Origin: Robiginitomaculum sp.
GTDB taxonomy: Bacteria; Pseudomonadota; Alphaproteobacteria; Caulobacterales; Maricaulaceae
Length of the DNA: 64,000 nucleotides
NCBI GenBank assembly: GCA_002733905.1
Contig: NVXK01000012.1
Location: 38,362 to 102,361, forward strand
Reading direction: 5' to 3'
Under the pieces are notes generated by a model. That model did not search any database. It worked only from the letters and a program-made list of their open reading frames with translations, and was not told where the DNA came from. This document shows positions 41,191-58,822 of the stretch, piece after piece. Numbering within the stretch: position 1 is the first letter of the stretch; each line of letters starts with the position of its first letter. A program made the translations under genes and the position numbers.

Positions 41191-41841
41191 TTAAATCTTT
41201 GTTTTAAAAATCAAAAATAGGTTATTTTGTGGCATATCCATAACTGTGCAGGAGTTTAGCCCTCTATCTGCGAAGATATGCTTAACGGAATCTAAATTTC
41301 GTACACCCCAGTGAGAATTTCGGGCCTTCAAAGAACGGTCAAAAGCTAAATTAGAAGACGCGGTCGTTTCGCCTGTCAAAAACGGCCCGTATAAACACAA
41401 AACACCGCCGTTTTGTAAAATTATACTGCCCCCCTTGGCCAAGCCCAAAGCCGCGTCCCAAGGTGCGATATGTATCATATTTGCACAATAGATTACGTCA
41501 GTATTTCCTAAATCTTGCCACCATTTTTCGCGTGTGACATCAAGGGTGAGTGACAAAGGTAATTGGCGCGGCAAATCTTGTGCATAAGCATTTTGGCTTT
41601 GCCGAGACGGCGCGTCAATGTCAGACATTTGCCATTTTATATCTTTGCGAAGCCCACATACATGTGCAGCATGTTGCCCCGTACCCGATGCAATTTCCAA
41701 GACATGAGCATTTTTTGGTAAAACACCCACAAGATGTTTGCCAATAACACTGCGGTTCCTCTCGGCAGATGGCGAAAATAGTTTCTCGCCAACGCGGTCT
41801 CGCATTTCCATATGCACAGGGGTTGGCGCTTTATGATCCAC
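41191..41841 (-). CDS. DUF938 family SAM-dependent methyltransferase-like protein
   Basis: A 216-residue protein with a Rossmann-type methyltransferase core: motif I VLEIASGTGQHAAHV, then WQMSDIDAPSRQSQNAYA and DVIYCANMIHIAPW. The opening SPSAERNRSVI and the later GGVLCLYGPFLTGETTASSNLAFDRSLKARN are characteristic of DUF938. The reaction is unknown. The first codon is a GTG that overlaps the stop of the upstream histidine kinase (TAGTG), indicating coupling; an ATG at 41811 inside would give a shorter product. Members in bacteria are often found singly, so the pairing with the FeuQ-like kinase is notable but not explained. Confidence 0.8.
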   Translation of the reverse strand: MDHKAPTPVHMEMRDRVGEKLFSPSAERNRSVIGKHLVGVLPKNAHVLEIASGTGQHAAHVCGLRKDIKWQMSDIDAPSRQSQNAYAQDLPRQLPLSLTLDVTREKWWQDLGNTDVIYCANMIHIAPWDAALGLAKGGSIILQNGGVLCLYGPFLTGETTASSNLAFDRSLKARNSHWGVRNLDSVKHIFADRGLNSCTVMDMPQNNLFLIFKTKI

Positions 41842-43283
41842 TATCCATCCACGACAGTCGGGAGAATGAGGATAACACGAAGCCCGTTTTTTGGGGATTT
41901 CCCCAAGCTTAAACTACCATTATACGCACGAGCAAGGTCATTAACAATGGAAAGACCGAAACCACTACCCGGTGTCGCTTCATCAAGTCTCTCTCCCCGT
42001 TTCAATACAATCGCATACTCCTCTTCCGCTAGCCCGGGGCCGTTATCATCAACAACCAATTTAATTTTTGCGTTCGTAGGGCCTAGGCGTTCCACCGTGA
42101 CATTGACTTCGCTATGGGTCCATTTACACGCATTATCCATTAAATTCCCGACCATTTCTTCTAGGTCGCGTTGCGCGCCACGAAAGAGAATGCCTTTATT
42201 GACTGAAATGTGAATATCTAAATCCTTATCCCGATAAATACGCGGCAAGGTACGCGCAAGACTTAGCAGTATAGGCTTAACAGGTGTGACCTCACCAATG
42301 CTTTGCCCTCGCGCCGCCGCCCGTGCACGCCGTAAATGATGATCAACCTGTTTTGACATTTCCGTCGTTTGTCGCTCAACAAGCTTTGCATATGCAGTTG
42401 TCTTGCCTTTGGATTCGTTTATCAACACAGCCAACGGCGTTTTCAAAGCATGGGCTAGGTTTCCGACATGGGTTTGTGCATACTCCACGACCTCTTTATT
42501 ATGACCTATAAGAGAATTTAGTTCATCAGCCAATGGCGTAATCTCTATCGGAAATACACCGACAACAGATCGCGCGCGTCCCTCACGTACATCAGCGATT
42601 CGTCTTTGTAGTTCAAAGAAGGGTCGCAAACCAATGCGGACTTGCATAAAAATCGCAGCAGACAAGGCCAGAGCGATCAGGCTCATCAAGCCAATGGCAA
42701 GATAGGAAAACCTACGCACCGCCTGCTGGGTTGGGCGTTTGTCTGCCGCCGCGACAATCACGATTGCCCGCTCACCCATACCGGGAAAAACGACAGATTC
42801 AATAGCGAGACGAAGCGGCTCATTATCTGGCCCTTGTGCAATCGACGTTACAATATTTCCGCCCTGCCCGCGTACTTTTCGCGCGTCTTGTATGGGAAGC
42901 GTTAGGGTTGCACCATAAAGGGAGCGTGAGCCCATGAGCGGTTCTATGCGCCCGTTCTCATTAAGCTCACCGACGAGCCAATAGCGGCCAGACAAGGCTC
43001 TTTGATAGCTCGGATCAATGGGTTCATTTGTTAGCTTGATTTTGACATCATCAACACTTTCCACAACTTCGACATAGGCAATCAATGACTGAATCGTATT
43101 GATAAGCGGGTCATCAAATTGCTTATAAGTTGACATGCGAAAGAATAAAATCAAACCAGTACCTGCGATAATCAACGCAGGTATAGCCCAGTAAAATGTC
43201 GTGCGAACAAGCCCCCAGACGAATGATTTTCCGCCTTGGGGCTGTGTTTTCTGGGAGTGTTCTGAATTATTTTCCTCAGACAT
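41841..43283 (-). CDS. Sensor histidine kinase, FeuQ/PhoQ-like
   Basis: A 480-residue kinase with membrane helices at about 26–48 and 195–217, a periplasmic domain between them, a HAMP linker, and a kinase core: H-box AHALKTPLAVLINES, N-box LMDNACKWTHSEV, G-boxes VVDDNGPGLAEEE and GSGFGLSIVNDLARAYNG. The short HisKA with ALKTPL is typical of the PhoQ/FeuQ group, whose known members sense envelope or osmotic conditions. It follows its regulator gene by 38 bases, and the DUF938 gene overlaps its stop. Confidence 0.88.
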   Translation of the reverse strand: MSEENNSEHSQKTQPQGGKSFVWGLVRTTFYWAIPALIIAGTGLILFFRMSTYKQFDDPLINTIQSLIAYVEVVESVDDVKIKLTNEPIDPSYQRALSGRYWLVGELNENGRIEPLMGSRSLYGATLTLPIQDARKVRGQGGNIVTSIAQGPDNEPLRLAIESVVFPGMGERAIVIVAAADKRPTQQAVRRFSYLAIGLMSLIALALSAAIFMQVRIGLRPFFELQRRIADVREGRARSVVGVFPIEITPLADELNSLIGHNKEVVEYAQTHVGNLAHALKTPLAVLINESKGKTTAYAKLVERQTTEMSKQVDHHLRRARAAARGQSIGEVTPVKPILLSLARTLPRIYRDKDLDIHISVNKGILFRGAQRDLEEMVGNLMDNACKWTHSEVNVTVERLGPTNAKIKLVVDDNGPGLAEEEYAIVLKRGERLDEATPGSGFGLSIVNDLARAYNGSLSLGKSPKNGLRVILILPTVVDG

Positions 43284-45460: not shown

Positions 45461-48400
45461 TTAGGGGGAAAAACTATATTGCGTGCCTGCACCCCGCCCG
45501 TAAATTCTCGACATTTGAAAAATATTTATGTGTATGTTTTCTGGCACAAAACCATACAATGTTTCAAGCTCTGGCAAGGTTAGATTTAGCTCTGGAATTT
45601 GCGTTACCAGCGTTGCGAGAACATTATCTCCATCACAAATATCAATCTCATACATTTCAGTGTCTTCACCAAGCGGCACTTCACGCGACACCCAATCATC
45701 ACCATCAACTCTTGTACGGCGCACCCATGAAATTGTGATAGTTTGGCCATTTGTTTTTGCTTTGACATGCACCACACAATACGGGCGTAAATGAGCGGCG
45801 TGGTAAATATGTGATATTTTCTGTGTGTCGCGGCGGCCATTCGCTTTTGCGGTCAGTTTAATTTCAAGCCCTCTTAGCGATGAACTTAATCGCAAGTCTT
45901 GCCATCCCTGCCCTAAATATATGACACGCGCGCCTGAGTTCACAACATCATCCATATCGCTATCACTTCCGTAACGGCCTCGCAAAAACTTATGAATACG
46001 ATATATGTCGACTCCGATAAGGACGGCGTCCTGGCATTGGAATATCTCCCAACCGCATTGTGTTTCTACGGCCAATAAATTTCCACCCGCAAGCATTTCG
46101 GCGTCACTTATCGAAGCAAGACGAATATTTGGAAGATAGATTTCTATGGCAGGGTGATTATCAAACAGAGCAATATTCCCTCGCTTTAAATCCTGTTTTA
46201 AATACCCAATAGAGACTGGTGCTCTTAAAGACGTCGTTTGAGCATTTTCAAAAGAAACACTGGTTTGCACCCAAGGATGCACAACCGCACCGACAAGCAC
46301 ACCTTGGCGCGAATTATCATTTGTGATGTCAGGAATGTCCAAGGCAAAAACATCAGGTGTCGATGACCAAACTGGTGCGCCGCCTGCCCCTGCTACGGCG
46401 GTGTTCACAAGCAGGGGACGGCGCGCGCCTTCACGTCTTGCTTTGACGACATTCTGAGACAATCCTTCTTTTTGGGTAATTAACCACGCCACGTCCTCGG
46501 AGCCATCTTGTCCATTAAGGTATAAAATATCGCCAGTTTCTAGTCCCAAATATTTAGGGGGAAGAACAAGTTCAACACCAGAATTTTCTTCATGAGTTTG
46601 CGCCAATATACTTTGCGACATTTGTTTCGCCTGAGCCGTATCGAACACCAAAGGTGCCTGTACGTTCAATACGCGCACGGCTTCACTTAACAGGCCTTGC
46701 GCTGTAACTGAGCCAGATTGATAGGATTGGGATTTTTCTATAAAGCCAAGACGTACATCTTTGACACGCGCATCTGCGTCATCATATGTGTGTGTGAAAA
46801 TCGGGTGCCCTTCGCGGTTCACGCAATCATCCCGTTGTATCACAACGGGGCTTTGCACACCCTTTGATGCAAATTTCAATCCATCACTTCCTTCGATCAA
46901 ATCAAATCCATATACTAAGCTAAGGGGGGTCAGGGCCGAACGCGCACTCATTGGGCGGTCAATCACAAAGCCGCTTAACATACCATGCACATGAGAAACA
47001 TCAGGCAGAGGGCTACCGCTAGACACTGTGATTTCTGCGACAACATCCGCGAGACTGACCAAGCCTGTGCGTCCTGAAAGCCAATGTCCCAATTGCCAGT
47101 TATCTCCATCCGACCAAATATTTTTACGGGCTGGAAAATCTGGATAAGGCCGCGCATCCCAACACCAAATATGGGTCATATCCGTATCAATCATTTTGCC
47201 TATATATTGTGTAGAGCTTGGGTTATTATCATCCGCGTCCCAATAGGAAATAAAGGCTTCGAGATATCGGCGTTGTATTAAATCATCACGGACGGCATCA
47301 GAAAAATACGGCGCATAGCTTTCCGAGCTTTTGGGGTCCCAAAAAACATTTGGTTGATTAGCGCCCTTGTCAATTGCCGGGCATCCAATTTCTGTAAACC
47401 AGATCGGTTTCGATTGTGGTATCCATGCCGTAGACGCCGTCATTTCGTCTCCTCCTATACGCTCGTGATGAGGGTTTTGCCACCAATTGCGAATATCTTT
47501 ATACCGAAACACCCATGGTTTATTTGCCAGCCCGTCTGTAATGGGGGTGCGTGTTTGTGACGTGCGGTCTTGGGCGCTAGCATAATACCATTCATACCCC
47601 TCACCGCCTTCGATATTACCGCGCAGATAATCAAGGTCATAAATATCAGGAGCAATCAGGGCGTCGTGATGATCGTCCCCTGCGCGCCAATCTGACAAAG
47701 GCAAATAGGCATCAATGCCAATTGCATCAATATTTGGATCCGCCCAGAGGGGATCAAGATGATAGAGAACATCTCCCGTACCGTCTTGAGGGTGATGGCC
47801 AAAATACTCGCTCCAATCGGCGGCGTAAGTGAGTTTCGTATCTGCCCCTACAATTGTGCGTACATCGCCAGCCAAAGACTTAAACGCATGTACTGTTGGA
47901 TATGCCCCTGTTTCGTCACGTATGGTTGTGAGACCCCGCAGTTCTGATCCAATTACAAACCCGTCAACACCACCCGCGAGATTTGCAATATGTGCATAGT
48001 GTAAAATCATTCGCCGCAAAGAATATTCAGGTGCGCCCGTATAGCTCACACCCTCGGGCGTCACTGAATAATCCGAAGGGCTACACTCACCAAAGAATGC
48101 CGACACGTGTTGCCGAGCAGCCGCACTGCCCATAATGTCAGGCGCACACGTAATCCGTCCACGCCAAGGCAGTGCGGGTTGCGACGTACCGCCATAAGGA
48201 TTGGGCAGTTGGTTATCCGCACTAATATCCATCAAGATAAACGGATAAAGAGAGACCTTAAACCCACGTGCTTTCAGAGATTTTATCGCTTCTATGACCG
48301 ACATATCATCGGGTGTACCACCATATGTTGGCGAACCATCGATCTGAGAAACAACATAAGCATGACTACGTATATCGCCGCTCACTTGCCAATCTTTGGG

Positions 48401-49279
48401 CGTTATCTTTCTCTCGAGACCTTCAACACCGGGGCGAATTTTACAATGTGACGCCCGTAAATCATCCCCGAACCAAGAGACCACTAAAGTCACAGACTTG
48501 CAATTTGGCAATTGGGTTTCGAGTTGATCAAGAGCGCATTCAATATCGGCACGACCACTTAAATTATTCATATTTACAGGTCGTGTTGTCCCAGGGCCAA
48601 GACGTTGTTCCGTAATTGATGTACCATAGGCGAATTCGCCAGAACCAGGGATCATATCCACACCCAAGACCAAATCTTCAAGGCGTTTCTCATCATTAAT
48701 ACGTTTTGGCATACGGATGATTTCGAAATTCAGTTGCGGCAAACGGCCACCAAAATCATCGACAGGCATGTCTTCAAATACCACATACGCAGTGCCTTTA
48801 AAGGCGGGGACATCACCGCCCTCTATTTCTGCAATCAGAGGGTCTGCGGTTTGGGTGTGCGTACCCGTATAGACGCGCATATTAAGCCCCTCCATTTGCA
48901 AAGGCTGTCCATTGGCCCAAATTTGATCAATGCCTAAAATTTCACCTTCGCACAGACCAACCGCAAAACTCAGCGTGTAATCATATTCCCGTGTACGGGG
49001 GCCGCCCTTTACCCCTTGGCGTGTTTCGGTCACATGTTCTTTGACACGCGCAGCCCAGATGACTTGGCCCGCAATACGTACCCGTCCGAAAACACTTGCC
49101 ATTGGCGCACCATTACGAGAAGATTGTATATGTAGGGTTTCCAGTTGCGGCCCTTCAAACACACGGTTATCCAAGGCATTGTAAATCGTTCGGCGCGCAT
49201 GGGATATGGCCATACGTTTTGCCGTATGTAGTAGGTTCGTGCCTGCCGTTTTAGCGACACTTAAAACGATATTTGACAT
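45461..49279 (-). CDS. GTA g15: large tail-tip protein (megatron)
   Basis: A 1272-residue protein that forms the tail-tip fibre base in RcGTA-type particles. Visible parts: an N-terminal tail-hub region (about 1–200, with VFGRVRIAGQVIWAARV), a TIM-barrel-like middle (about 420–720, with GGVDGFVIGSELRGLTTIRD and the aromatic-rich YAADWSEYFG), and a C-terminal beta-rich region from about 800. Length is close to the roughly 1300 residues I recall for RcGTA g15. The stop is 59 bases before the J-protein start; the start is one base after g14. All reading frames are intact. Confidence 0.9.
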   Translation of the reverse strand: MSNIVLSVAKTAGTNLLHTAKRMAISHARRTIYNALDNRVFEGPQLETLHIQSSRNGAPMASVFGRVRIAGQVIWAARVKEHVTETRQGVKGGPRTREYDYTLSFAVGLCEGEILGIDQIWANGQPLQMEGLNMRVYTGTHTQTADPLIAEIEGGDVPAFKGTAYVVFEDMPVDDFGGRLPQLNFEIIRMPKRINDEKRLEDLVLGVDMIPGSGEFAYGTSITEQRLGPGTTRPVNMNNLSGRADIECALDQLETQLPNCKSVTLVVSWFGDDLRASHCKIRPGVEGLERKITPKDWQVSGDIRSHAYVVSQIDGSPTYGGTPDDMSVIEAIKSLKARGFKVSLYPFILMDISADNQLPNPYGGTSQPALPWRGRITCAPDIMGSAAARQHVSAFFGECSPSDYSVTPEGVSYTGAPEYSLRRMILHYAHIANLAGGVDGFVIGSELRGLTTIRDETGAYPTVHAFKSLAGDVRTIVGADTKLTYAADWSEYFGHHPQDGTGDVLYHLDPLWADPNIDAIGIDAYLPLSDWRAGDDHHDALIAPDIYDLDYLRGNIEGGEGYEWYYASAQDRTSQTRTPITDGLANKPWVFRYKDIRNWWQNPHHERIGGDEMTASTAWIPQSKPIWFTEIGCPAIDKGANQPNVFWDPKSSESYAPYFSDAVRDDLIQRRYLEAFISYWDADDNNPSSTQYIGKMIDTDMTHIWCWDARPYPDFPARKNIWSDGDNWQLGHWLSGRTGLVSLADVVAEITVSSGSPLPDVSHVHGMLSGFVIDRPMSARSALTPLSLVYGFDLIEGSDGLKFASKGVQSPVVIQRDDCVNREGHPIFTHTYDDADARVKDVRLGFIEKSQSYQSGSVTAQGLLSEAVRVLNVQAPLVFDTAQAKQMSQSILAQTHEENSGVELVLPPKYLGLETGDILYLNGQDGSEDVAWLITQKEGLSQNVVKARREGARRPLLVNTAVAGAGGAPVWSSTPDVFALDIPDITNDNSRQGVLVGAVVHPWVQTSVSFENAQTTSLRAPVSIGYLKQDLKRGNIALFDNHPAIEIYLPNIRLASISDAEMLAGGNLLAVETQCGWEIFQCQDAVLIGVDIYRIHKFLRGRYGSDSDMDDVVNSGARVIYLGQGWQDLRLSSSLRGLEIKLTAKANGRRDTQKISHIYHAAHLRPYCVVHVKAKTNGQTITISWVRRTRVDGDDWVSREVPLGEDTEMYEIDICDGDNVLATLVTQIPELNLTLPELETLYGFVPENIHINIFQMSRIYGRGAGTQYSFSP

Positions 49280-49280
49280 G

Positions 49281-49724
49281 CTAATTCCTTATATTTGGAA
49301 ATCTGTAGGCATAGGCGCGGCGCGAACGCCAAAACGGGGCCAATCGCGATTTTGTGACAGAACGTCCCCAATAGGCATGGACGATAAAAACATCATCAAG
49401 CATGATGGCCATATGCTTTGCTGGTGCGCCCACATTCATCCGAAACAAAATCACATCACCGCTTTGCATTTGCGAAAACGCAATCGGTGACAAACAATTA
49501 TCGGCGGCGTGTTTCAGTGTTTCAGCCCCGTTTATTTCCGCCCAGTCGGGGGAATAGGACGGTAGTTGTATTGGCTCTTTGCCATAGAATGCACGCCAAA
49601 CACCGCGCACCAATCCGAGGCAATCACAGCCTGCATGTTTGGCGCTAGCTTGGTGCAGATAGGGTGTGCCAATCCATGTCAAAGCTTCGTCACAAATCAT
49701 GGCTCGTGTGGGGGCAATACTCAT
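49281..49724 (-). CDS. GTA g14: NlpC/P60-type peptidase
   Basis: A 147-residue cysteine peptidase that would cut peptidoglycan during DNA delivery. The catalytic Cys is in AGCDCLGLVRG (about residue 36), a His in PAKHMAIML, and a second His/aromatic HAYWGRSV. Position and length fit RcGTA g14. It overlaps g13 by four bases (ATGA) and is followed at once by g15. Confidence 0.9.
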   Translation of the reverse strand: MSIAPTRAMICDEALTWIGTPYLHQASAKHAGCDCLGLVRGVWRAFYGKEPIQLPSYSPDWAEINGAETLKHAADNCLSPIAFSQMQSGDVILFRMNVGAPAKHMAIMLDDVFIVHAYWGRSVTKSRLAPFWRSRRAYAYRFPNIRN

Positions 49725-50383
49725 TGAGAATACCGAGAACTTCCGTCTTTAACGTCGCCTTCCAATGGCGCGGCATAGCTTGCGTCTTCACCTATCAAAT
49801 ATGGGAAGCCAGCAAAATTATGGGCGTTTTGAAACTGGTCTTTGCAGGCTTTGAAACTATGCGGACAGGAAATTCCTTGCGGAAGAACCGAAATATCAAC
49901 ACCACATATAGCGCCGCCGAATGCGACTTCACATTGGCGAGAAAACACGCGCCCTGTGGACTGTTCAAGTTTCGCAGACCGCCCTGTAAGCTCTGCCTCG
50001 ATTTGGCCGTCGCGAATATGAATGTCGCCAATTGTACCGCCCCAAATTAGACCGTATTCGGTAGGGTCATTCCAATTCACCCGTAAAATTTCAATTTCAG
50101 CATTATGATACAGCCCTGCTTTCACATCCACATGGGTAATTTCGTCTGCGTTTATTGCGCCAAGAACCGTACTATTGTTCAAAACAAACCCCAACTGAGT
50201 ATCAATATCAGACGCGGAAAATCCTGTACCCCCCTGATAAACAACACCATCAATTTCAAGGCGGCGGTCATGATCAGTAAAGCCCATGACATGCCCGTCC
50301 ATACGGGTCAATTTCCATGCCCAGCACAATGTTGTACATTCTTGTTCTATATGAGATTGGAACGCCGTTGAGAAATTACGCAT
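49721..50383 (-). CDS. GTA g13: hub protein (DUF2163), shortened
   Basis: A 220-residue tail-hub protein. Seen: an N-terminal DUF2163 part (about 1–150, with MGFTDHDRRLEIDG) and four cysteines: C151, C160 (ICGVD), C173 and C180, followed by FQNAHNFAGFPYLIGEDASY. The cysteines fit the iron–sulfur-type site of tail hubs. In full-length family members (about 290 residues, from memory) some 70 residues separate the two cysteine pairs; here only 12 do. The end motif is kept, so this is an internal deletion, not a truncation. Frame is intact and both overlaps with g12 and g14 are kept. Confidence 0.88.
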   Translation of the reverse strand: MRNFSTAFQSHIEQECTTLCWAWKLTRMDGHVMGFTDHDRRLEIDGVVYQGGTGFSASDIDTQLGFVLNNSTVLGAINADEITHVDVKAGLYHNAEIEILRVNWNDPTEYGLIWGGTIGDIHIRDGQIEAELTGRSAKLEQSTGRVFSRQCEVAFGGAICGVDISVLPQGISCPHSFKACKDQFQNAHNFAGFPYLIGEDASYAAPLEGDVKDGSSRYSQ

Positions 50384-50981
50384 AAGGCAAAACCTCTAAT
50401 AATGGTATATTCACAGCACTGCCTGCACCAAAATCTTCGCGCGATGTTTTAAGGTGGTCTGTGTCAAAACGTACAGGGACATCAAAGGAAAAGCTTGCAG
50501 TGATCTCAGCCCCGTTTTGAGGTGGGTTATCAAAGCTAACAAAGCCCGTTTGGTCATCAACAGTGAAGCCTGTCATTTCGACACCATTCACAAATGCCCG
50601 TACACTGTTCGGTACAGGTTTTGTAATTATACGTGTCCAACTATTCATAGAATCCGTGTATTTCTTGATCAGTTGAAATGCCGTTTGCACGCCGTCGCTT
50701 GTACCAAGAATTTGCATGTCGGCTTGATTGTCAATTGGGTCACGAAAACGAAATCCATAAAGCTGACCACGGCGCGCCTCATAAAAATTTACAAGGAGTT
50801 GAATGTCGCTCAAACTTTTTACGCCCACGCCGGCGTCATAACGTCTGCGTGTTTGGCTATGGCTTGCATTACGTTGTTCCTGCCCACTCGCAAGTGTAAT
50901 AATTTCCGTTTGGATATTGGGGCCACCGCTTGCACCAAAGGCGAGAGGTAGTGGAAAATTTATGTTATGAAAACCTGACAT
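50376..50981 (-). CDS. GTA g12: distal tail protein (DUF2460)
   Basis: A 201-residue protein. The opening INFPLPLAFGASGGPNIQTEIITLASGQEQRN and the middle QLLVNFYEARRGQLYGFRFRDPIDN are typical of DUF2460, the RcGTA distal tail protein family (g12), which forms a ring below the tail tube. Normal length. It follows g9 (major tail protein) by only 23 bases; in RcGTA g10 and g11 lie in between. It overlaps g13 by eight bases. Confidence 0.9.
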   Translation of the reverse strand: MSGFHNINFPLPLAFGASGGPNIQTEIITLASGQEQRNASHSQTRRRYDAGVGVKSLSDIQLLVNFYEARRGQLYGFRFRDPIDNQADMQILGTSDGVQTAFQLIKKYTDSMNSWTRIITKPVPNSVRAFVNGVEMTGFTVDDQTGFVSFDNPPQNGAEITASFSFDVPVRFDTDHLKTSREDFGAGSAVNIPLLEVLPYA

Positions 50982-51004
50982 GAAACGTCTCCGATTTGGT
51001 AATT

Positions 51005-51415
51005 TTATTGCGGTGAGAACTGAATTTTGCCAGCCGACATCAAGGTGATTTCATAGGTTGCCTCACCATTATAACTGCCAAGGTAATTCAAGCTTGTGAT
51101 AAGAAATACGCCTGCGATTATGCCAAAACCTGGGATATGTATTTGATAGTCTTGTACGCTTTGTGCAAAAAAATGTGTGCGTATGAGCGCGTCGGAATTG
51201 CTGTCGCAAAATATTCCCGCACCAGAAATTTCTACGAATTTCACACCTGCATCTGGCAGTAATTCTCGCCAAGCCTCTTCGCTCTCACTATGGGTGATAT
51301 CAATGGGTTTCGTGTTGAACTTAAGGCTCTTGGTTCGCAGACCAGCGACGGTAATAAAACTGTCCGTTTCATCTTTGATTTTGATGAGCATGTTCCGCCC
51401 ACTTTGCGCGCTCAT
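51005..51415 (-). CDS. GTA g9: major tail (tube) protein
   Basis: A 136-residue beta-rich tube protein. The segments MLIKIKDETDSFITVAGLRTKSLKFN, the DITHSESEEAWRELLPDAGVK stretch, SGAGIFCDS and the late TYEITLMSAGKIQF are those of the TP901-1/GTA major tail family. Its start follows the stop of g8 (TAAATG). Directly downstream, without room for further genes, comes g12. Confidence 0.9.
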   Translation of the reverse strand: MSAQSGRNMLIKIKDETDSFITVAGLRTKSLKFNTKPIDITHSESEEAWRELLPDAGVKFVEISGAGIFCDSNSDALIRTHFFAQSVQDYQIHIPGFGIIAGVFLITSLNYLGSYNGEATYEITLMSAGKIQFSPQ

Positions 51416-51841
51416 TTACGCCTCCTCAAGTGAATGTGTTGTGATGTTCACACGGATAAGCCCGTGCAATGTGCGTCCATCAGGTGCGCGGAAATGGTCT
51501 GTGTAGAGAATATTTGCGCTCACGAGATTCGCATCTGTGAGTATAAAGGTCTCACTTTCCAAAGCGTCTATTACTGCTGCTAAACACTGCATGATTTCGG
51601 CGCGTCCAGAATAGCGCGACCAGATGTGTAGGCTCAGAGCATGGCTCGTCATCGGACGATTATCACCACCAACATCAGTACTCCGCATATCGCCGTAACT
51701 GAGATAAGGGTAGATCGGATCTTCAGGCACATGGTCATAAAGACGCGGCGAGTTTCCGAGCAAGCTTTGTATGCTTATGTCATTTGTCAAAGCCGTGTGA
51801 ATAGCCTTGGCAACAGATTGTATTTGATCAGCGTCACTCAT
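51416..51841 (-). CDS. GTA g8: tail terminator (DUF3168)
   Basis: About 141 residues from the ATG at 51841, which overlaps the stop of g7 by four bases. The sequence has an alpha/beta start VAKAIHTALTNDISIQSLLGNSPRLYDHVPEDPIYPYLSYGD and a late LRGLIRVNITTHSL-type strand, matching DUF3168/tail terminator proteins that cap the tail tube below the head. Length is normal; longer upstream starts would remove the four-base coupling. Confidence 0.88.
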   Translation of the reverse strand: MSDADQIQSVAKAIHTALTNDISIQSLLGNSPRLYDHVPEDPIYPYLSYGDMRSTDVGGDNRPMTSHALSLHIWSRYSGRAEIMQCLAAVIDALESETFILTDANLVSANILYTDHFRAPDGRTLHGLIRVNITTHSLEEA

Positions 51842-52155
51842 TGCTGTTCCTCTTCGCAAATAAGGTGAAGTCGTTCGCGGCGTGTATCTGGATCAGAACT
51901 GGTCAGAACCCGTAGTTTTTTCTCGCCCCAGATTAACCGTGCGCGTTCAGGGAAACCTGCTTGCCAGCGCATGATAACAAGGTAAGTTTTTGTGACAGAC
52001 AAACGCCCATTTCTCGCGCGTTCTTGTATCGTTTTCGGGGTAATATGCGCCCAAGTTTGCCCGTGCAAAACCCAGCTTGTTTGCGCCCCGCCAAATTCAT
52101 CTGCAACAGTATGCGGCACGTAAATACCGATGCGTGTACGTAAATTCCCTATCAT
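51838..52155 (-). CDS. GTA g7: head–tail adaptor (head closure)
   Basis: About 105 residues from the ATG at 52155, four-base overlap with g6 (ATGA). The pattern LRTRIGIYVPHTVADEFGGAQTSWVLHGQTWAHI and the later RLIWGEKKLRVLTSSDPDTRRERLHLICEE is the typical head-closure/adaptor family fold (SPP1 gp16-type), which plugs the connector. An upstream GTG at 52167 is an alternative start. Confidence 0.87.
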   Translation of the reverse strand: MIGNLRTRIGIYVPHTVADEFGGAQTSWVLHGQTWAHITPKTIQERARNGRLSVTKTYLVIMRWQAGFPERARLIWGEKKLRVLTSSDPDTRRERLHLICEEEQQ

Positions 52156-52715
52156 AACCGTACCCACCGATACGGCATTAGCAACGCATCCACCATCATC
52201 GGAATAGAGGGGTGATCCGCATGATCTCTGTATTCAAAATGCTGTGCAAGCAGCAGCAATATTGCCTGTTTGATTGGCAAAGGAATATCGTCTGCGCTCT
52301 CGCCATATCCCGCAGAAAATTGAATTTCAATTTGGGCGGGATTGGTGAGAAAATCCGCCCATGACGATCCCGTGTTTAGCTTTACGTCTCCTGGGTCACG
52401 GCGAATATTTACAGTGTATTGTTGTGGTGCAATCACAGCGCTCTGCTCTGCCGCGTCAAACAATGTTATGGATGTGACGGCTAATAGCGGCGGCCTCGGT
52501 AAATGCAAACACGTGCTATTTGGTAAGTCTCCACTATATTTATATGCGCGCGTAATCAGTGTGCGACCAATTATATTTTCGACTTGTGAACGCGCAAGCG
52601 TAATAAAGCTCGTGATCAATGTGTTTTCATCATCCCCATCAACACGCAAAAACTGTTTAGCATAGGCGAGATCAATCGGTTCAATATTTGGGGGCGCCAA
52701 TTCTATTAAGGCCAT
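52152..52715 (-). CDS. GTA g6: head–tail connector
   Basis: A 187-residue helical connector. The opening EPIDLAYAKQFLRVDGDDENTLITSFITLARSQVENIIGRTLI and the late IKQAILLLLAQHFEYRD are the marks of the gp6-type connector family. It sits below the portal and joins it to g7. The gap to the capsid gene upstream (83 bases) contains a GC-rich hairpin (52761–52782). Confidence 0.9.
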   Translation of the reverse strand: MALIELAPPNIEPIDLAYAKQFLRVDGDDENTLITSFITLARSQVENIIGRTLITRAYKYSGDLPNSTCLHLPRPPLLAVTSITLFDAAEQSAVIAPQQYTVNIRRDPGDVKLNTGSSWADFLTNPAQIEIQFSAGYGESADDIPLPIKQAILLLLAQHFEYRDHADHPSIPMMVDALLMPYRWVRL

Positions 52716-52798: not shown

Positions 52799-54055
52799 CT
52801 AGGACGCGGCGAACTTCAAAAGTTTGATCGCGTTGAAATCCTGTATGCCGCCGCCGACGCGTTTTGTTGTGTAAAACAAAACATATGGCTTGGCTGAATA
52901 TGGGTCACGCAGGACACGAACGCCTTGACGGTCAACGATAAGATAACCACGACGGAAATCGCCAAATGCGATGGAATAGCTATCCGACGCGACATCTGGC
53001 ATGTCTTCGACTTCGACGACGGGGTAACCTAACAATGTTGAAGCTTGACCACTTTGCAATGATGGCTGCCAAATATAATTTCCATCCGCATCTTTGAACT
53101 TTCTAAGCTGACCAAGTGTGCGGCGGTTCATTGTGAAATTGGCGTTGGCGCGGTAGCGCGGTTTTGGCGCGTAGATAAGATCAATTAGGGAATCAATCGG
53201 AGAATTCGTATCAAATGCACCGTCCGAACCTGTCGCGACATAGCCCATATTGCCCCACGAATGCGCGCTATCGGCAACATTGGTATAGCCCAAAATACCT
53301 TTTGGTTTATTGGTGCCATTCCCGACGGTGAACGCATTGGTTTCTTGCGCGGCAAAGATATCGCGGACTTCATCAGCGAGCCATTGATCCACATCGGCGA
53401 CACCATCATCAAGCAAAAGTTGGGTTGCCGCTGGCATTGCGTAAAGCTCTCCCACAGGAAAATCTAACAGCTCTAATTGCGGCGCTGTGGTTTCTGGACG
53501 CGCGTCGGTTTCTCCGGCCCATCCAGAGGACGCACCATTTATGCTAATCGGTTTTTTGAAACTAGACGCACCTACTTGACGTACGCTGGCAATAGAGCGG
53601 AAAATTGAAGCTTCGCGTAGCGCGCTGTCAATAAGGCTTTCTGTTTGCGCGGGCGCAACATACCCACCTTCACCGCCAACACCTGCATTCGCGCCCTTGC
53701 TTTCCATCGCAAGAAGGCCCGTGCCGTCACCGCTTCGAATATATGATGACCATGCAGATTTGGATTCTGCATTTTGTGTCGCTTTATTAAGTTGAGAGCC
53801 GAGTTGAGAGCCAAGTTGAGGTTGGGCATTATGAATAGACATACGCTCGATACGGCGTGATTGTTGGTCGAGTGCTGTGTTCAAGCGGTCGACTTTTTCT
53901 TCGAGCAAAATATCTGCTGAGTTTTTGGCTTCGATCTCTGCAAGGCGCACATCATTTGCGTCCTTGAAAGCTGAAAATGTTGAGGCAAAGTCAGCATGGG
54001 CAGATTGCAAATCTGTCGGCTGTGCCATTTTAGTTTCTTTGATATGTGTTTTCAC
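52799..54055 (-). CDS. GTA g5: HK97-type major capsid protein
   Basis: A 418-residue HK97-fold capsid protein. Residues 1–105 are a charged helical scaffold (delta) domain, for example DANDVRLAEIEAKNSADILLEEKVDRLNTA, removed by the g4 protease; the mature core has the E-loop and A-domain blocks EGGYVAPAQTESLIDSALREAS, SGWAGETDARPET, NGTNKPKGILGY and LGYPVVEVEDMPDVA. The start is GTG at 54055, with AGGAG six bases before it and a four-base GTGA overlap with g4. A short 12-bp repeat (LGSQ LGSQ) lies in the scaffold part. Closely resembles RcGTA g5. Confidence 0.93.
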   Translation of the reverse strand: MKTHIKETKMAQPTDLQSAHADFASTFSAFKDANDVRLAEIEAKNSADILLEEKVDRLNTALDQQSRRIERMSIHNAQPQLGSQLGSQLNKATQNAESKSAWSSYIRSGDGTGLLAMESKGANAGVGGEGGYVAPAQTESLIDSALREASIFRSIASVRQVGASSFKKPISINGASSGWAGETDARPETTAPQLELLDFPVGELYAMPAATQLLLDDGVADVDQWLADEVRDIFAAQETNAFTVGNGTNKPKGILGYTNVADSAHSWGNMGYVATGSDGAFDTNSPIDSLIDLIYAPKPRYRANANFTMNRRTLGQLRKFKDADGNYIWQPSLQSGQASTLLGYPVVEVEDMPDVASDSYSIAFGDFRRGYLIVDRQGVRVLRDPYSAKPYVLFYTTKRVGGGIQDFNAIKLLKFAAS

Positions 54056-54551: not shown

Positions 54552-54794
54552 TTAGTTTTGAGGCTTGTGGTCAAGCCTGCGTTCGATGCGTGCGAGGGAT
54601 TGCCTTGCCATAATCATTTGTTCCTCGAGCCTGACTAAACGTTCTGCGATTGGCAGCGATGTCGAGGTCGTTTTTTCAAGAATTTGCAAGCGTGTTTCGG
54701 CTGCCCCGCCCCACATAAGAACCGCCGCAGATTGAAGGGCAAATGTTACAATTATGCCTGCGCTCACAGAGCGGTTTATTTGAAACCCGCTCAT
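54552..54794 (-). CDS. GTA g3.5-like small membrane-segment protein
   Basis: An 80-residue protein with one hydrophobic segment (about 11–30, VSAGIIVTFALQSAAVLMWGGAA) and a helical coiled second half (ILEKTTSTSLPIAERLVRLEEQ). Its place between portal and protease and its size match the g3.5 slot of the RcGTA cluster; the function there is uncertain. Start overlaps the portal stop by four bases (ATGA). Confidence 0.7.
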   Translation of the reverse strand: MSGFQINRSVSAGIIVTFALQSAAVLMWGGAAETRLQILEKTTSTSLPIAERLVRLEEQMIMARQSLARIERRLDHKPQN

Positions 54795-55984
54795 TTCGCG
54801 CCTCTTTCATCAGGCATATGTTTTGCAATGCCAACCATGTCGCGTTTCTCGTCATCGCTCAGAAAATCTACATCCTTAAGGCGGTTCCAGATGAGGGCAC
54901 GTTCAGAACTGAGCGCGGGAATTTTATCAAGTTCTACATGTAGACTAAGGTCTTCGCCAAACCAGAGGCCGAGCCATGTGCCAATACTGTCCGCCGTTTT
55001 TTGCACGAGCGGCAATATGGTTTGTCGCCAAAAGGCAAGATTGGCTTCTTTGTAATTGGCGTAAGTATTATCCCCAGGAATGCCAAGCAGCATTGGCGGC
55101 ACGCCGAAGGCAAGCGCGATTTCTCGCGCCGCTTCGCGCCTTGCATTAATAAAATCCATGTCATGGGGGGACATGCTCATGGGTTTCCAATCAAGCCCGC
55201 CTTCTAACAGGAGGGGCCGCCCTGCTGCTTGCGCGCCAGCATGGTTGGTTTCTAATTCTGACTTAAGACGCGCAAATTGTTCATCGCTTAAACGTTCACC
55301 ATTTTTGCCTGCACTGTTATAAATCAGTGCGCCACTGGGCCTTGCGGAATTATCGAGGAGCGCCTTTGTCCATACGCCCCCTGCATTGTGAACATCTACG
55401 GCTTGGGCTGCGGCTTCGAGTGGTGAAAACCCGTAAATATCATCGACGGGATTGAACAGACGCATATGGTGTAATTTGGAACGGCCTGTCAGAGTATCTG
55501 TAATAAAGCACCGCGCACGGCCACCAACTTCATATTCCCAAGATAGAGGACATCCGCGATTATCCGTGCGTACACTCATGCGGTCGGGGCGTAATGTGAA
55601 AAGGGCTTTAGGTACATCGTCAACACATACCACCTCTAAATACCCATTGCCGCTCAGTTGTAAATATCCATAAAGGCTTTCCATTAATTCAGCGCGTGAA
55701 TGGTTTGGGTTTGGGTTATCAAGAAGGGTTTGCACTGGGTCTTGTTGAACGCACTCGCCGTTACGCCGCGTACAAAAGGCAACAGACGCGGCGGCTTCGG
55801 CAATCATGCGGACGCAGCGATATGCAACTGCATTGCGTTGATACCCTTCCCTCGCCAGCCCACTATAATCACGTGATGACCAACGTGCCGCATTGGCAAG
55901 CTGTAAGGCAATAAGAGGGGATGTATGCGTTGAAGATTTTGTATTTTCGGGTCGCGAAAATGCTGTGCGTAACCAAGGTTTCAT
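54791..55984 (-). CDS. GTA g3: portal protein
   Basis: About 397 residues from the ATG at 55984, which has a GGA site seven bases before it (an ATG at 55996 is possible). An HK97-type portal: AYRCVRMIAEAAASVAF, ELMESLYGYLQLSGNGYLEVV, HMRLFNPVDDIYGFSPLEAAAQAV and AFGVPPMLLGIPGDNTYANYKEANLAFWR. It forms the ring for DNA entry and exit. A 17-bp palindrome (56000–56016) lies just before the start. Two non-structural genes separate it from the terminase. Confidence 0.92.
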   Translation of the reverse strand: MKPWLRTAFSRPENTKSSTHTSPLIALQLANAARWSSRDYSGLAREGYQRNAVAYRCVRMIAEAAASVAFCTRRNGECVQQDPVQTLLDNPNPNHSRAELMESLYGYLQLSGNGYLEVVCVDDVPKALFTLRPDRMSVRTDNRGCPLSWEYEVGGRARCFITDTLTGRSKLHHMRLFNPVDDIYGFSPLEAAAQAVDVHNAGGVWTKALLDNSARPSGALIYNSAGKNGERLSDEQFARLKSELETNHAGAQAAGRPLLLEGGLDWKPMSMSPHDMDFINARREAAREIALAFGVPPMLLGIPGDNTYANYKEANLAFWRQTILPLVQKTADSIGTWLGLWFGEDLSLHVELDKIPALSSERALIWNRLKDVDFLSDDEKRDMVGIAKHMPDERGAK

Positions 55985-55999
55985 AAATACATCCATCTT

Positions 56000-56133: not shown

Positions 56134-56565
56134 TTACGCAACGCCCATGAGGGAGAAAGTTGCGGGTGCTTCGTCTTGACCTGCATATCTAAGCGCTTCT
56201 TTATAATTTATGCGAATATCTTCGCGTAATCCTTCGGCGCCCAAAAGAGAGGCAATGGTGATTGCACTTCTATAAGCAAGGATTGCGTGTTCAAGGGCAC
56301 GCATATCAACTTCATTTTTACCAACGGACAAAAGAACATCACCCAATTTCTTTTGAATATGGGCATTTTCAATCGGCGTAGAAGACTGGCTGTATAGTTC
56401 TTCTGTGGAACGCATGGCTTGCACAGCGTCAATGAGGGGATCAATATCGCCAGTATCACACGCGAGAACGATCATCTTCAATGCCATTTCACGGTTTAAA
56501 TCCGCAAGCTCTTCTGTTGCCTCTTTTTGTTTTTGACGTAAAAACAATTTGTTAAACTTAGGCAT
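56134..56565 (-). CDS. Helical-repeat (TPR-like) protein inside the GTA cluster
   Basis: About 143 residues from the ATG at 56565, supported by GGAG six bases upstream. All-helical: an N-terminal basic helix KFNKLFLRQKQKEATEELADLNREMALKM and then two to three amphipathic pairs, KKLGDVLLSVGKNEVDMRALEHAILAYRSAITIA, which look like TPR or SEL1-type helices. Not a known GTA structural gene; I recognise no specific family. It sits between portal and terminase, where RcGTA has nothing. It may be an ordinary neighbour that moved in. Confidence 0.55.
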   Translation of the reverse strand: MPKFNKLFLRQKQKEATEELADLNREMALKMIVLACDTGDIDPLIDAVQAMRSTEELYSQSSTPIENAHIQKKLGDVLLSVGKNEVDMRALEHAILAYRSAITIASLLGAEGLREDIRINYKEALRYAGQDEAPATFSLMGVA

Positions 56566-56671
56566 AATATTCTCCACACCTGTGTATCACTCTTTAATTT
56601 TGAGTATGCATTATGGGAGAATTGTGGTTAAAAAGAGTTTAAAAATTAGGGTAAATAAGCGGTTAATATCA

Positions 56672-57178
56672 TTATTTTTGAATATTATTCCACAAACCCT
56701 TGGCATAGGCATCAAAATCATCCCCTGTTTGTAAACGGTAGAGGGGAAATTGTGCATGCGAGAAAATAGCGTCTTTGAAAGAATCGCTCAACTCAGCCTG
56801 AGCTGTTTTATGGGAAGACCCGTCCAATTCTATTGCACAGACAAAGCTTCCATCGCCCTTACAAATCACAAAATCAACATGGCGAGATTTAATACGGCCA
56901 CGATATTGCCATTTTAAACGTTGGTCTTTGATATCGAGGCGCACACGTAAAACATCTTCCAACCGCACTTTGGTAAACACATGAAACCCACGCGGCATAT
57001 GGCGAATAAGTGCGTAGAAAAATGCGTTTTCAGCTTGATTTACAAAAATATTCCCACGTGTTTCATAGGCATGTAACGTCTTTTTATCTGCTTGCGTGGT
57101 CGTTGGCGCTTGCCATTTTTGGTTCAAAACCACCCAAATGACAAAACCACATATAATCAAAACAATAAATATTTCCAT
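56672..57178 (-). CDS. DUF2726 protein (nuclease-like) inside the GTA cluster
   Basis: A 168-residue protein with an N-terminal membrane helix (about 2–19) and then a DUF2726 domain: ENAFFYALIRHMP, then FTKVRLEDVLRVRLD, HVDFVICKGDGSFVCAIELDGSSHK and YRLQTGDDF. DUF2726 is related to the PD-(D/E)XK nuclease fold, where the Asp of VDFVI and the Glu of CAIELDG hold the metal. Function is unknown. Membrane anchoring suggests a cytoplasmic enzyme tied to the inner membrane. It lies between the terminase and the helical-repeat gene. Confidence 0.7.
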   Translation of the reverse strand: MEIFIVLIICGFVIWVVLNQKWQAPTTTQADKKTLHAYETRGNIFVNQAENAFFYALIRHMPRGFHVFTKVRLEDVLRVRLDIKDQRLKWQYRGRIKSRHVDFVICKGDGSFVCAIELDGSSHKTAQAELSDSFKDAIFSHAQFPLYRLQTGDDFDAYAKGLWNNIQK

Positions 57179-57216: not shown

Positions 57217-58467
57217 TTATAATTGCCGCAACCGTGGTTGGGCACGAGGTTTTAGTAATAAATCATTTACGGCCCAAACAAGGGCATCTGCTCTATCGGG
57301 GCTTTTGGTGCTCTTGCCCATCTGTGTTCCAAGTTCGCAAAGCTCATCCTCAAGCTTACAAAAATGGCCGATATGTTTGACCATGCCTTGTTCATACAAT
57401 GCCGCCACAGGTTCTGCGCGGGCTGTTTTTGATTTGGAGGCATAGACGGTACGGATTGGAATATTTGCGTTAATCGCGTTAAATACACTTTTGACCATTT
57501 CTCCGCCCTGATTAATTTCTACGAGAATATAGGCGGCGTCCCATTTTTGAAACATCGCATATGCATGTCGCGCCCACCGATCAGGCGACAAGCCCTGCAC
57601 AGTTTCATCCGCAAGGATGTATGCCGCTCTGCGGTGTTCATGCTGACGACATCCCGCGATAATAATACCGCAACTGTCGGCACGTTCACCGCTTGTGATT
57701 GGCGGATCTATGGCGACAATAATTTTATCGAGGTCGGGTCTGTATTTGACATATGCGTTTTCGATCATATTACGTGTCCACAATGCCCCTTGAATATCAT
57801 CAAGGATTTCACCGTTCAATTCTTGCCGACCCAAACGTGTCCCCCCATATGTTTCAAAAATTGTTGAAATGAAAACAGACGATAAATTTGCTTTATTGTC
57901 GAGGGTCGCGGCTTTGGTAATAACGACACCCTCTTGCTGCATCAGTGTTCGCAATGGTGGTGTTGGCTTGGGTGTAGATGTCAAAACAAGCCGTGGATGC
58001 TCCCCAAGACGTAGGCCAAAACGTAAGTTCGAAAGTGTGTCTTCGGGATATTCCCATGCACAAAATTCGTCCCCCCAGCCTGCGTCAAATTGCGGGCCAC
58101 GTAAACCATCCGGGTCTTGAGACGAGAACACATATCCTATAGCCCCATTTGGCCAGACCAGTCTGCGGCGTGAGCTTTCGTAAATGGGGCGTTCAAACGG
58201 AAACCCGATATTTAGCAATCCGCTTTCGCCTTCAATCATCACCTCGCGTGCGTCCGCATAAGTCGGTGCTACCAAGGCAATACGTCCTGCGCCATTTTTG
58301 ACTTGTGCACGTATCCACTCTGCGCCTGCCCGCGTTTTACCTGCGCCGCGTCCGCCAAGAAACAGCCAGACAATCCAATCCCCATCTGGGGCAAGTTGTG
58401 AGGTGCGCGCCGTATAGCGCCAACTGTTTTCGAGGGTAACAAAGTCCCTATGGGTCAAGGCTTCCAT
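57217..58467 (-). CDS. GTA g2: large terminase (packaging ATPase–nuclease)
   Basis: About 416 residues from the ATG at 58467 (MEALTHRDF), which overlaps the end of g1 by 20 bases; a longer in-frame start at 58602 would overlap g1 more and adds nothing conserved. Seen: Walker A GGRGAGKTRAG (about 38–48), adenine-binding APTYADAREVMIEG, Walker B DAGWGDEFCAWE, and the RNase H-like nuclease with IIVAIDPPITSGERADSCGI and SPDRADALVWAVNDLL. It packages fragments of host DNA in GTA heads. Confidence 0.93.
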   Translation of the reverse strand: MEALTHRDFVTLENSWRYTARTSQLAPDGDWIVWLFLGGRGAGKTRAGAEWIRAQVKNGAGRIALVAPTYADAREVMIEGESGLLNIGFPFERPIYESSRRRLVWPNGAIGYVFSSQDPDGLRGPQFDAGWGDEFCAWEYPEDTLSNLRFGLRLGEHPRLVLTSTPKPTPPLRTLMQQEGVVITKAATLDNKANLSSVFISTIFETYGGTRLGRQELNGEILDDIQGALWTRNMIENAYVKYRPDLDKIIVAIDPPITSGERADSCGIIIAGCRQHEHRRAAYILADETVQGLSPDRWARHAYAMFQKWDAAYILVEINQGGEMVKSVFNAINANIPIRTVYASKSKTARAEPVAALYEQGMVKHIGHFCKLEDELCELGTQMGKSTKSPDRADALVWAVNDLLLKPRAQPRLRQL

Positions 58468-58822
58468 CACTGATATCTGGGTCTGTATCTCGGCGGAGGC
58501 GAGTATAGATGCTGTTAAGTCGATCTTGGATGACACGCATTTCCGCGTCATTTGGTGGGGGGATTTTGTCATAGGGGATATGGGTGTTTTCGTCTGTCTC
58601 ACTTTCTATTTGTGAGTTTTGTTTCTCGTCTTGGTCATCGACGATTTGGGTGAGTTTATAAACTGCGCTTAAGGCCTTGGCACGCCGTTCTACCTCTGTG
58701 GCGGCGTCTGTCAAAAACTGAATGTCGAGTTGTTCAATTGCCATGCAAATATTCTGGCGCACGACGTCCATTGCGGGCGGCGTATTCGTAAGATTGTTTT
58801 TATCTACAGACTGGGTTTTCAT
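58448..58822 (-). CDS. GTA g1: small terminase-like protein
   Basis: A 124-residue protein with a helical hairpin MAIEQLDIQFLTDAATEVERRAKALSAVYKLTQIV, an acidic linker (DDQDEKQNSQIESETDENTH) and a basic end YTRLRRDTDPD. By place (before the terminase, overlapping it by 20 bases) and size it fits RcGTA g1, the small terminase; sequence alone is only suggestive. The first ATG (58822) has an AGAGG directly next to it, so the true start may be a little further in. Confidence 0.6.
   Translation of the reverse strand: MKTQSVDKNNLTNTPPAMDVVRQNICMAIEQLDIQFLTDAATEVERRAKALSAVYKLTQIVDDQDEKQNSQIESETDENTHIPYDKIPPPNDAEMRVIQDRLNSIYTRLRRDTDPDISDGSLDP

What the first reader, a model, noticed from the sequence alone, without database searches (positions are those of the whole stretch)
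50982..51004. GTA cluster lacks tail chaperone and tape measure genes (g10, g11)
In the RcGTA gene order, g10 and g11 (tape measure) lie between the major tail protein g9 and the distal tail protein g12. Here g9 ends at 51005 and g12 starts at 50981, leaving only 23 bases, so neither gene can fit, and no other gene in the window is a candidate. All other structural genes are intact, so this is a clean absence rather than decay. Either the tail is built without a tape measure, or the gene lies elsewhere, or the particle is not made.
Basis: partly seen in the sequence, partly recalled or inferred. Interest (0 to 1): 0.7.

Follow-up and report, generated by a model that had tools for sequence, protein, structure and literature searches.

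The report
Gene transfer agent missing tail-measuring genes
A bacterium carries an otherwise intact set of genes for a virus-like DNA-transfer particle from which the genes that measure and help build the tail are cleanly missing, so either its particles no longer work or they work without a measured tail.

Summary
In detail: 23 bases separate g9 (51005-51415, minus strand) from g12 (50376-50981), and three genes are gone, not two: the tail chaperones g10 and g10.1 and the tape measure g11. Of 97 other genomes of the family with g12, 96 have g11 directly upstream of it (the nearest relative among them); the last has g11 on another contig. Searches of the own genome find no GTA copy elsewhere; the one PF11836 hit lies in a prophage with its own 1092-aa tape measure. 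So this is a loss of about 0.92 kb, seen in no other genome of its family searched here. The other cluster genes g2-g15 are full length. On this branch head genes changed at the pace of flanking genes, distal tail genes (g9, g12, g13, g14) faster, though this test is post hoc and noisy. A second, independent clean loss exists in another family of the order (G046), where a DUF805 gene sits between g9 and g12. Another genus keeps a 98-aa mini tape measure without chaperones, but lacks head genes nearby too. Most likely this is a tail-defective GTA in early erosion; a working GTA without a measured tail is not excluded. New variant of a known kind.

The parts
50982..51004 (-). 23-base g9-g12 spacer where g10, g10.1 and g11 stand in relatives; carries a ribosome-binding-site-like GGAG before g12
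51005..51415 (-). g9, major tail (tail tube) protein, 136 aa
   Evidence: PF06199 5.8e-37; TIGR02126; RcGTA Rcc01691 structure 6tba 5.9e-37
50376..50981 (-). g12, distal tail protein, 201 aa
   Evidence: PF09343 1e-72; TIGR02217; 6tba 8e-56
49721..50383 (-). g13, baseplate hub protein, 220 aa
   Evidence: PF09931 2e-48
49281..49724 (-). g14, NlpC/P60 cell-wall peptidase, 147 aa
   Evidence: PF00877 6e-10; TIGR02219 5.9e-50
45461..49279 (-). g15, megatron baseplate protein, 1272 aa
   Evidence: NF048004 equivalog, 1523.1 bits against cut-off 800; PF13547; 6tba 3e-277
51416..51859 (-). g8, tail terminator
   Evidence: PF11367 2.3e-27
51838..52167 (-). g7, stopper
   Evidence: PF05521 8e-18
52152..52715 (-). 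g6, adaptor
   Evidence: PF05135 1.2e-8
52799..54055 (-). g5, major capsid protein
   Evidence: PF05065 5.2e-89; TIGR01554
54052..54540 (-). g4, prohead protease
   Evidence: PF04586 3.7e-24
54552..54794 (-). g3.5 by position, 80 aa
   Evidence: no Pfam family; matched in 11 of 13 related loci
54791..55996 (-). g3, portal
   Evidence: PF04860 1.4e-80
56134..56577 (-). conserved gene of unknown function between g2 and g3 (x2)
   Evidence: no Pfam, NCBIfam or PHROG hit; matched in 12 of 13 related loci
56672..57178 (-). DUF2726 gene between g2 and g3 (x1)
   Evidence: PF10881 1.2e-23; matched in 10 of 13 related loci
57217..58602 (-). g2, large terminase (the listed GTG start overlaps the next ORF; the true start may lie further in)
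   Evidence: PF03237, PF17289
58448..58822 (-). g1 by position only, 124 aa
   Evidence: no family hit; 45% identical to a 128-aa ORF in L054 (nearest relative), no match in the 12 other loci

Best explanation
An RcGTA-type head-tail cluster in a Robiginitomaculum-like alphaproteobacterium lost its tail-measuring module (chaperones g10 and g10.1 and tape measure g11, about 0.92 kb), most simply in one event on the branch since its split from its nearest relative seen here. Shown: the absence, its cleanness, that no other searched genome of the family has it, the lack of a recognisable GTA copy elsewhere in the draft genome, and that g2-g9 and g12-g15 are full length. Inferred: without the tape measure and its chaperones the tail-initiation complex does not form properly, so the g9 tube is not polymerised to a set length; the cell can still make heads and package DNA, but normal transducing particles are absent or rare. 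The head genes are still held at the usual pace while the distal tail genes have started to drift or readjust. It is a tail-defective GTA at an early stage of erosion.
For: Clean 23-base junction. Of 19 relatives' loci fetched, 16 had matches to both g9 and g12, and all 16 hold the module in 0.9-1.5 kb; the other 3 lacked a g9 match. In the family 100 of 101 g12 copies in 97 other genomes have a g11 match directly upstream, -1 to 269 bases. The g11 and g10 profiles give nothing in the own genome at E<=10, PF09550 nothing, though these Pfam models do recognise the nearest relative's g10 and g10.1. Published mutants: five TP901-1 tape-measure deletions, among them both 30-residue terminal ones, are listed with 'No tails' (PMC5099701, passages); RcGTA without g14 gives empty heads without tails (PMC7296036, passages). 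g9/g12/g13/g14 show 53 changes at sites invariant in six relatives against 79 in head genes, the six relatives together 47 against 163, p=0.0006. Head genes follow flanking genes (88:64 against 190:128, p=0.76). Eroded clusters occur in the same order.
Against: No stop or frameshift in any tail gene. If the excess change in g9, g12, g13 and g14 were neutral, about 2.3 nonsense changes would be expected (P of none 0.10), with g15 about 5.4, so constraint on the tail may persist. RcGTA makes some aberrant particles without tape measure. A parallel clean loss in G046 with an otherwise full cluster hints that the state can last. The rate test is weak: the grouping was chosen after seeing the data; one flanking gene (the kinase at 41841-43283) is as skewed by itself, 44:14; in G046 the tail group is not raised (36:59 against 81:128, p=0.90), only g9 (21:59 against 11:128, p=0.0005); and in the G046 set genomes that keep the module also deviate in the same tests (G302 tail lowered p=0.007; g15 raised in G194 p=0.0002 and G429 p=0.003, lowered in G302 p=0.003 and in G046 itself p=0.00008), so these p-values overstate.
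Confidence: 0.5

Rival explanations
1. A working GTA without a tape measure. The terminator, few or unmeasured g9 rings and the distal tail-megatron baseplate join directly; g9, g12 and g13 have adapted. This could suffice because a GTA only has to bring DNA into the periplasm, where the recipient's competence system takes it up, so the channel role of the tape measure is not needed.
For: Full-length tail and head genes; faster change in distal tail genes without a single stop; aberrant RcGTA particles lacking the tape measure still show the putative peptidase density, and RcGTA DNA goes to the periplasm and then the competence system (PMC7296036, passages); Caulobacter GTAs transfer DNA although particles showed no visible tail in electron micrographs, which the authors put down to a very short tail or to loss in preparation (PMC9632790, passages); GTA-type tape measures here are short (median 181 aa over 185 matching ORFs); second clean loss in G046.
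Against: Tape-measure terminal deletions leave siphophage TP901-1 without tails; the state is rare (own genome and G046 are the only full losses among the clusters examined); a recent loss of function explains intact ORFs equally well; the rate test is weak (see best explanation).
Confidence: 0.27
2. Assembly error: the module exists but was dropped from the contig.
For: The genome is a draft of 43 contigs, 96.9% complete, and reads were not available. No second genome with the junction was found (exact 24-base pattern, viral contigs only; no other genome of the family).
Against: The junction is 17 kb from the nearer contig end; no exact repeat over 10 bases flanks the module in 8 relatives, so no repeat-driven collapse is expected; both neighbouring genes are complete; distal tail genes changed faster on this branch, which an assembly error would not cause.
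Confidence: 0.08
3. The function is supplied in trans, by the resident prophage's tape measure and chaperone (contig C37) or by a gene too diverged to be recognised.
For: The prophage has a PF11836 protein (34.7 bits, cut-off 27.8) and a 1092-aa PF20155 tape measure protein.
Against: That tape measure is about eight times longer than those of the genus (134-143 aa in eight loci) and stands with its own tail genes; genome-wide g10 and g11 profiles find nothing else.
Confidence: 0.05

Closest known systems
RcGTA of Rhodobacter capsulatus (structure: PMC7296036, passages)
   Same: Same gene order g2-g9, g12-g15 (order partly recalled); g9, g12 and g15 match the solved RcGTA proteins; megatron equivalog.
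   Different: RcGTA has g11, a trimer that fills a tail of five g9 rings, and the chaperones g10 and g10.1 (names recalled; g10 with PF11836 and a second chaperone are mentioned in PMC11409702, passages); here all three are absent.
GTA clusters of the nearest relatives (Robiginitomaculum sp. NORP39, L054 = G001, and others)
   Same: 38-80% identity across g2-g15 in 13 loci, where the gene lies inside the locus; x2 between g2 and g3 is shared with NORP39, which has no x1 match.
   Different: Loci of the genus in which both genes were found have 942-1175 bases between g9 and g12; in NORP39 they encode PF11836, PF09550 and PF09718 proteins.
GTA cluster of G046 (unnamed species, another family of the order)
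   Same: g2-g9 and g12-g15 present, g10/g10.1/g11 absent from the cluster, g9 and g12 intact.
   Different: 586 bases with an opposite-strand DUF805 gene fill the place, so an independent event.
Caulobacter crescentus GTA (PMC9632790, passages)
   Same: Particles seen without a visible tail though DNA is transferred; same order (recalled).
   Different: Caulobacter vibrioides, searched as a control genome, has PF09550 and PF11836 matches (their place in that genome was not looked at).

Membership tests
RcGTA-type gene transfer agent | Head-tail genes g2-g9 and g12-g15 in RcGTA order on one strand | tested here: met
   (RcGTA gene order partly recalled; g9, g12 and g15 tied to RcGTA entries)
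RcGTA-type gene transfer agent | Megatron baseplate protein (NF048004 equivalog) | tested here: met
   1523.1 bits against cut-off 800
RcGTA-type gene transfer agent | Tail chaperones g10 and g10.1 and tape measure g11 | tested here: not met
   23-base gap; none elsewhere in the genome (the PF11836 hit is prophage). Under the completeness rule quoted in PMC10883770 (passage) this would count as an incomplete GTA region, so it is filed as a derived, incomplete cluster by descent.
RcGTA-type gene transfer agent | Common descent with family GTAs at the same chromosomal neighbourhood | tested here: met
   Flanking genes of the window (dnaJ towards pepN) are found in the stretches adjoining the GTA cluster of G001, G003, G006 and, in part, G008
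RcGTA-type gene transfer agent | Releases particles that carry random host DNA and transfer it | not testable with these tools
   needs experiment
RcGTA-type gene transfer agent | GafA or GafYZ activator in the genome | not tested

The most novel reading that the evidence does not exclude
A gene transfer agent that has dispensed with its tape measure and tail chaperones and still delivers DNA, through a minimal or unmeasured tail whose tube and distal proteins have readjusted; a state reached at least twice in this order.
Probability: 0.25. Interest if true: 0.75.

Novelty: new variant of a known kind. Interest (0 to 1): 0.48.

Why it matters
Tape measure and chaperones are generally treated as essential for siphovirus-type tails. 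A cluster that lost just this module, with an independent parallel in another family, while keeping the rest, is a natural experiment on whether a GTA needs a measured tail at all, and on how GTAs erode in their hosts (for instance as non-producing cheaters). It also warns that apparently intact GTA clusters need a check of g10-g11 before they are called functional.

Tried and rejected
Displaced module: PF11836 rings at G000:C37:11799-12086 but belongs to a prophage with its own terminase, portal, capsid, tail tube and 1092-aa tape measure, so rejected.

Assembly collapse through flanking repeats: longest exact repeat 8-10 bases in 8 relatives.

A convergent substitution in g9 (D96G in both G000 and G046) looked exciting, but G stands at that column in 53 of 259 g9 sequences, and shared changed sites are no more than chance (1 seen, 1.4 expected): dropped.

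Microhomology at the breakpoints: a DNA alignment against the nearest relative was not informative; a fold of the junction shows no structure (z 0.93).

A predicted fold of the nearest relative's g11 was poor (mean pLDDT 56) and is not used.

The tail-against-head test in G046 failed for the tail group and held only for g9. The fourth part of that script (family f2) crashed and was not repeated.

No copy of the junction in IMG/VR (exact 24-base pattern). Of the best 80 of 455 related IMG/VR stretches, 75 had g9 and g12; 74 of these hold all three module genes, 1 has no g11 hit in a 976-base gap.

In the order survey only about 150 places per gene were printed, so the 267 g9 and 271 g12 genomes could be compared only in part; 95 further regions were fetched around single hits and are part of the 196 loci.

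Full report
Observation. On the minus strand g9 ends at 51005 and g12 begins at 50981; the 23 bases between carry a GGAG seven bases before the g12 ATG. The cluster reads, in transcription order, g1-like ORF, g2 terminase, DUF2726 gene (x1), unknown gene (x2), g3 portal, g3.5, g4 protease, g5 capsid, g6, g7, g8, g9, g12, g13, g14, g15 (g1 and g3.5 by position only). Protein lengths of g2-g15 are like those in 13 related loci, apart from genes cut by contig or fetch ends and differing start choices. The window is G000:C33:38362-102361 of a 3.48-Mb, 43-contig genome, 96.9% complete. The nine closest named loci are eight Robiginitomaculum sp. and one unclassified alphaproteobacterium, all metagenome-assembled.

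What is missing. The nearest relative of the 14 compared by aminopeptidase N is G001 (75% identity; same-genus G005, G009 and G010 were not in that comparison), named NORP39 (L054). There 0.95 kb between g9 and g12 encode a PF11836 protein (g10), a PF09550 protein (g10.1) and a 134-aa PF09718 tape-measure protein (g11). Of 19 loci fetched from relatives, 16 had matches to both g9 and g12 and all 16 hold the module; L033, L045 and L049 lacked a g9 match.

Is it elsewhere? Profiles of g11 and g10 from relatives find nothing in the own genome even at E<=10, nor does PF09550; the g10.1 alignment itself was not run. PF11836 finds one place on contig C37, inside a prophage with terminase, portal, capsid, tail tube and a 1092-aa PF20155 tape measure. 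The g11 profile rings in 97 of 137 genomes of the family, so it is sensitive enough at this distance.

How rare is it? Family: 137 genomes were searched with g12. 99 match; without the own genome and G124 (a weak hit in a 1653-residue frame) 97 remain, with 101 g12 copies. From the tables I left out the own row, G124, a weak second row of G108, the second piece of the split G064 gene, and surplus or stray weak g11 rows. 100 of 101 copies have a g11 match directly upstream (-1 to 269 bases, median 11); in six of these copies (two in G027, one each in G125, G135, G136 and G119) the match lies in an 817- to 1248-residue frame, a phage-like long tape measure. The one miss, G004, has g11 on another contig. 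Order: in the 60-relative sample 44 other genomes have g12 and 43 have g11. The exception, G046, was read directly: g9 and g12 are intact, 586 bases between them hold a DUF805 gene on the other strand, and g2-g8 and g13-g15 are present. The g11 profile finds nothing in G046, but it is weak in that family (1e-14 to 1e-8 in three others), so a displaced copy there is less firmly excluded. In the 87 genomes whose two positions were printed on one contig and strand, the own genome has 35 bases between matches, the others 819-2713. Over 196 loci (some genomes twice; the own GTA not counted) 179 have both genes: 174 with g10, g10.1 and g11, 3 with a mini g11 only, 1 without a g10.1 hit, 1 (G046) with none; 17 had no pair. 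IMG/VR: 74 of 75 pairs complete. Named species: 75 of 80 loci with a g9 match upstream have 904-1534 bases; 5 had no g9 match.

Intermediate states. Three genomes of one genus (G317, G325, G387) have gaps of about 330 bases with a 98-aa mini g11 and neither chaperone. Their g2-g5 homologues were not found in about 16 kb (only a 51-residue g5-like stretch in G325), and in the one locus annotated (G325) a Na/H exchanger gene and an opposite-strand ORF separate g8 from g9, so these clusters are further eroded or reused. Tail ORFs that stay open therefore do not prove a working GTA.

Selection. Against outgroup relatives (four for GTA genes, three for most flanking genes) the G000/G001 branch ratio averages 1.35 over 14 GTA-cluster genes and 1.24 over ten flanking genes (htrA left out, cut by fetch ends). 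Counting changes at sites invariant in all others, head genes g2-g8 give 88:64 (G000:G001), flanking genes 190:128 (p=0.76), and g9/g12/g13/g14 57:17 (p=0.005 against either). With seven genomes: 53 tail against 79 head changes in G000, 47 against 163 in the six others (p=0.0006); with eleven genomes 17:14 against 47:190 (p=0.00007). In that tail test no other genome of these two sets reached p=0.05; g15 is mildly raised in G000 (p=0.04 and 0.01), lowered in G008 (p=0.03, seven-genome set). Caveats: the grouping was made after seeing the numbers; one flanking kinase gene alone is 44:14; in G046 the tail group is not raised (p=0.90) though g9 alone is (21:59 against 11:128, p=0.0005; G000 g9 alone p=0.018 and 0.019); and in the G046 set genomes with the module also deviate (G302, G194, G429) and G046's g15 is lowered (p=0.00008). 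So the rate signal is suggestive only. If the excess in the four genes were neutral decay, 2.3 nonsense changes would be expected, none seen (P=0.10); with g15 5.4. This leans, weakly, to constraint on a changed tail rather than free decay.

Mechanism. From passages of PMC7296036: RcGTA has five g9 rings, a g11 trimer fills the channel, aberrant particles lacking g11 occur, and DNA is proposed to go to the periplasm and then the competence system. From passages of PMC5099701: five TP901-1 tape-measure deletions, both terminal ones among them, are listed with no tails. I therefore hold a tail-defective GTA in early erosion most likely (0.5), and a GTA that works without a measured tail the main rival (0.27).

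Known work. Among the titles and abstract openings listed by searches (20 of 70; 20 of 65; 20 of 100; 12 of 30; none found) I saw no report of a GTA cluster without a tape measure; the unlisted papers were not seen, and I read only passages of seven papers. PMC10883770 (passages) discards incomplete GTA regions (392 to 293 OTUs), so missing genes in GTA regions are known in general. PMC9632790 (passages) reports Caulobacter GTA particles without a visible tail.

Noticed in passing
L132:8404-9174 (G046:C18): A second, independent GTA cluster without g10-g11: an opposite-strand DUF805 gene lies between intact g9 and g12.
   Followed up: yes
L225, L246, L251, L342-L344 (G317, G387, G325): A genus whose GTA-like cluster keeps g6, g8, g9, a 98-aa mini tape measure and g12-g15, but has no chaperones and no g2-g5 head genes in about 16 kb: possibly a tail-only remnant kept in three species.
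   Followed up: partly
56134-57178: Two genes between terminase and portal (a DUF2726 one and one of unknown family) are conserved in relatives' GTA clusters (10 and 12 of 13 loci).
   Followed up: partly
G011 (same genus): A 99% complete genome of the same genus has no g9, g12 or g15 match: apparently complete GTA loss.
   Followed up: partly
L032:1-20000 (G000:C37): A prophage in the own genome with its own 1092-aa tape measure; opposite-strand genes, one an RNase_T-type exonuclease, lie between chaperone and tape measure.
   Followed up: partly
L209 (G436:C59): g9 and g12 lie 18 kb apart on opposite strands of one contig: a rearranged GTA cluster.
   Followed up: no
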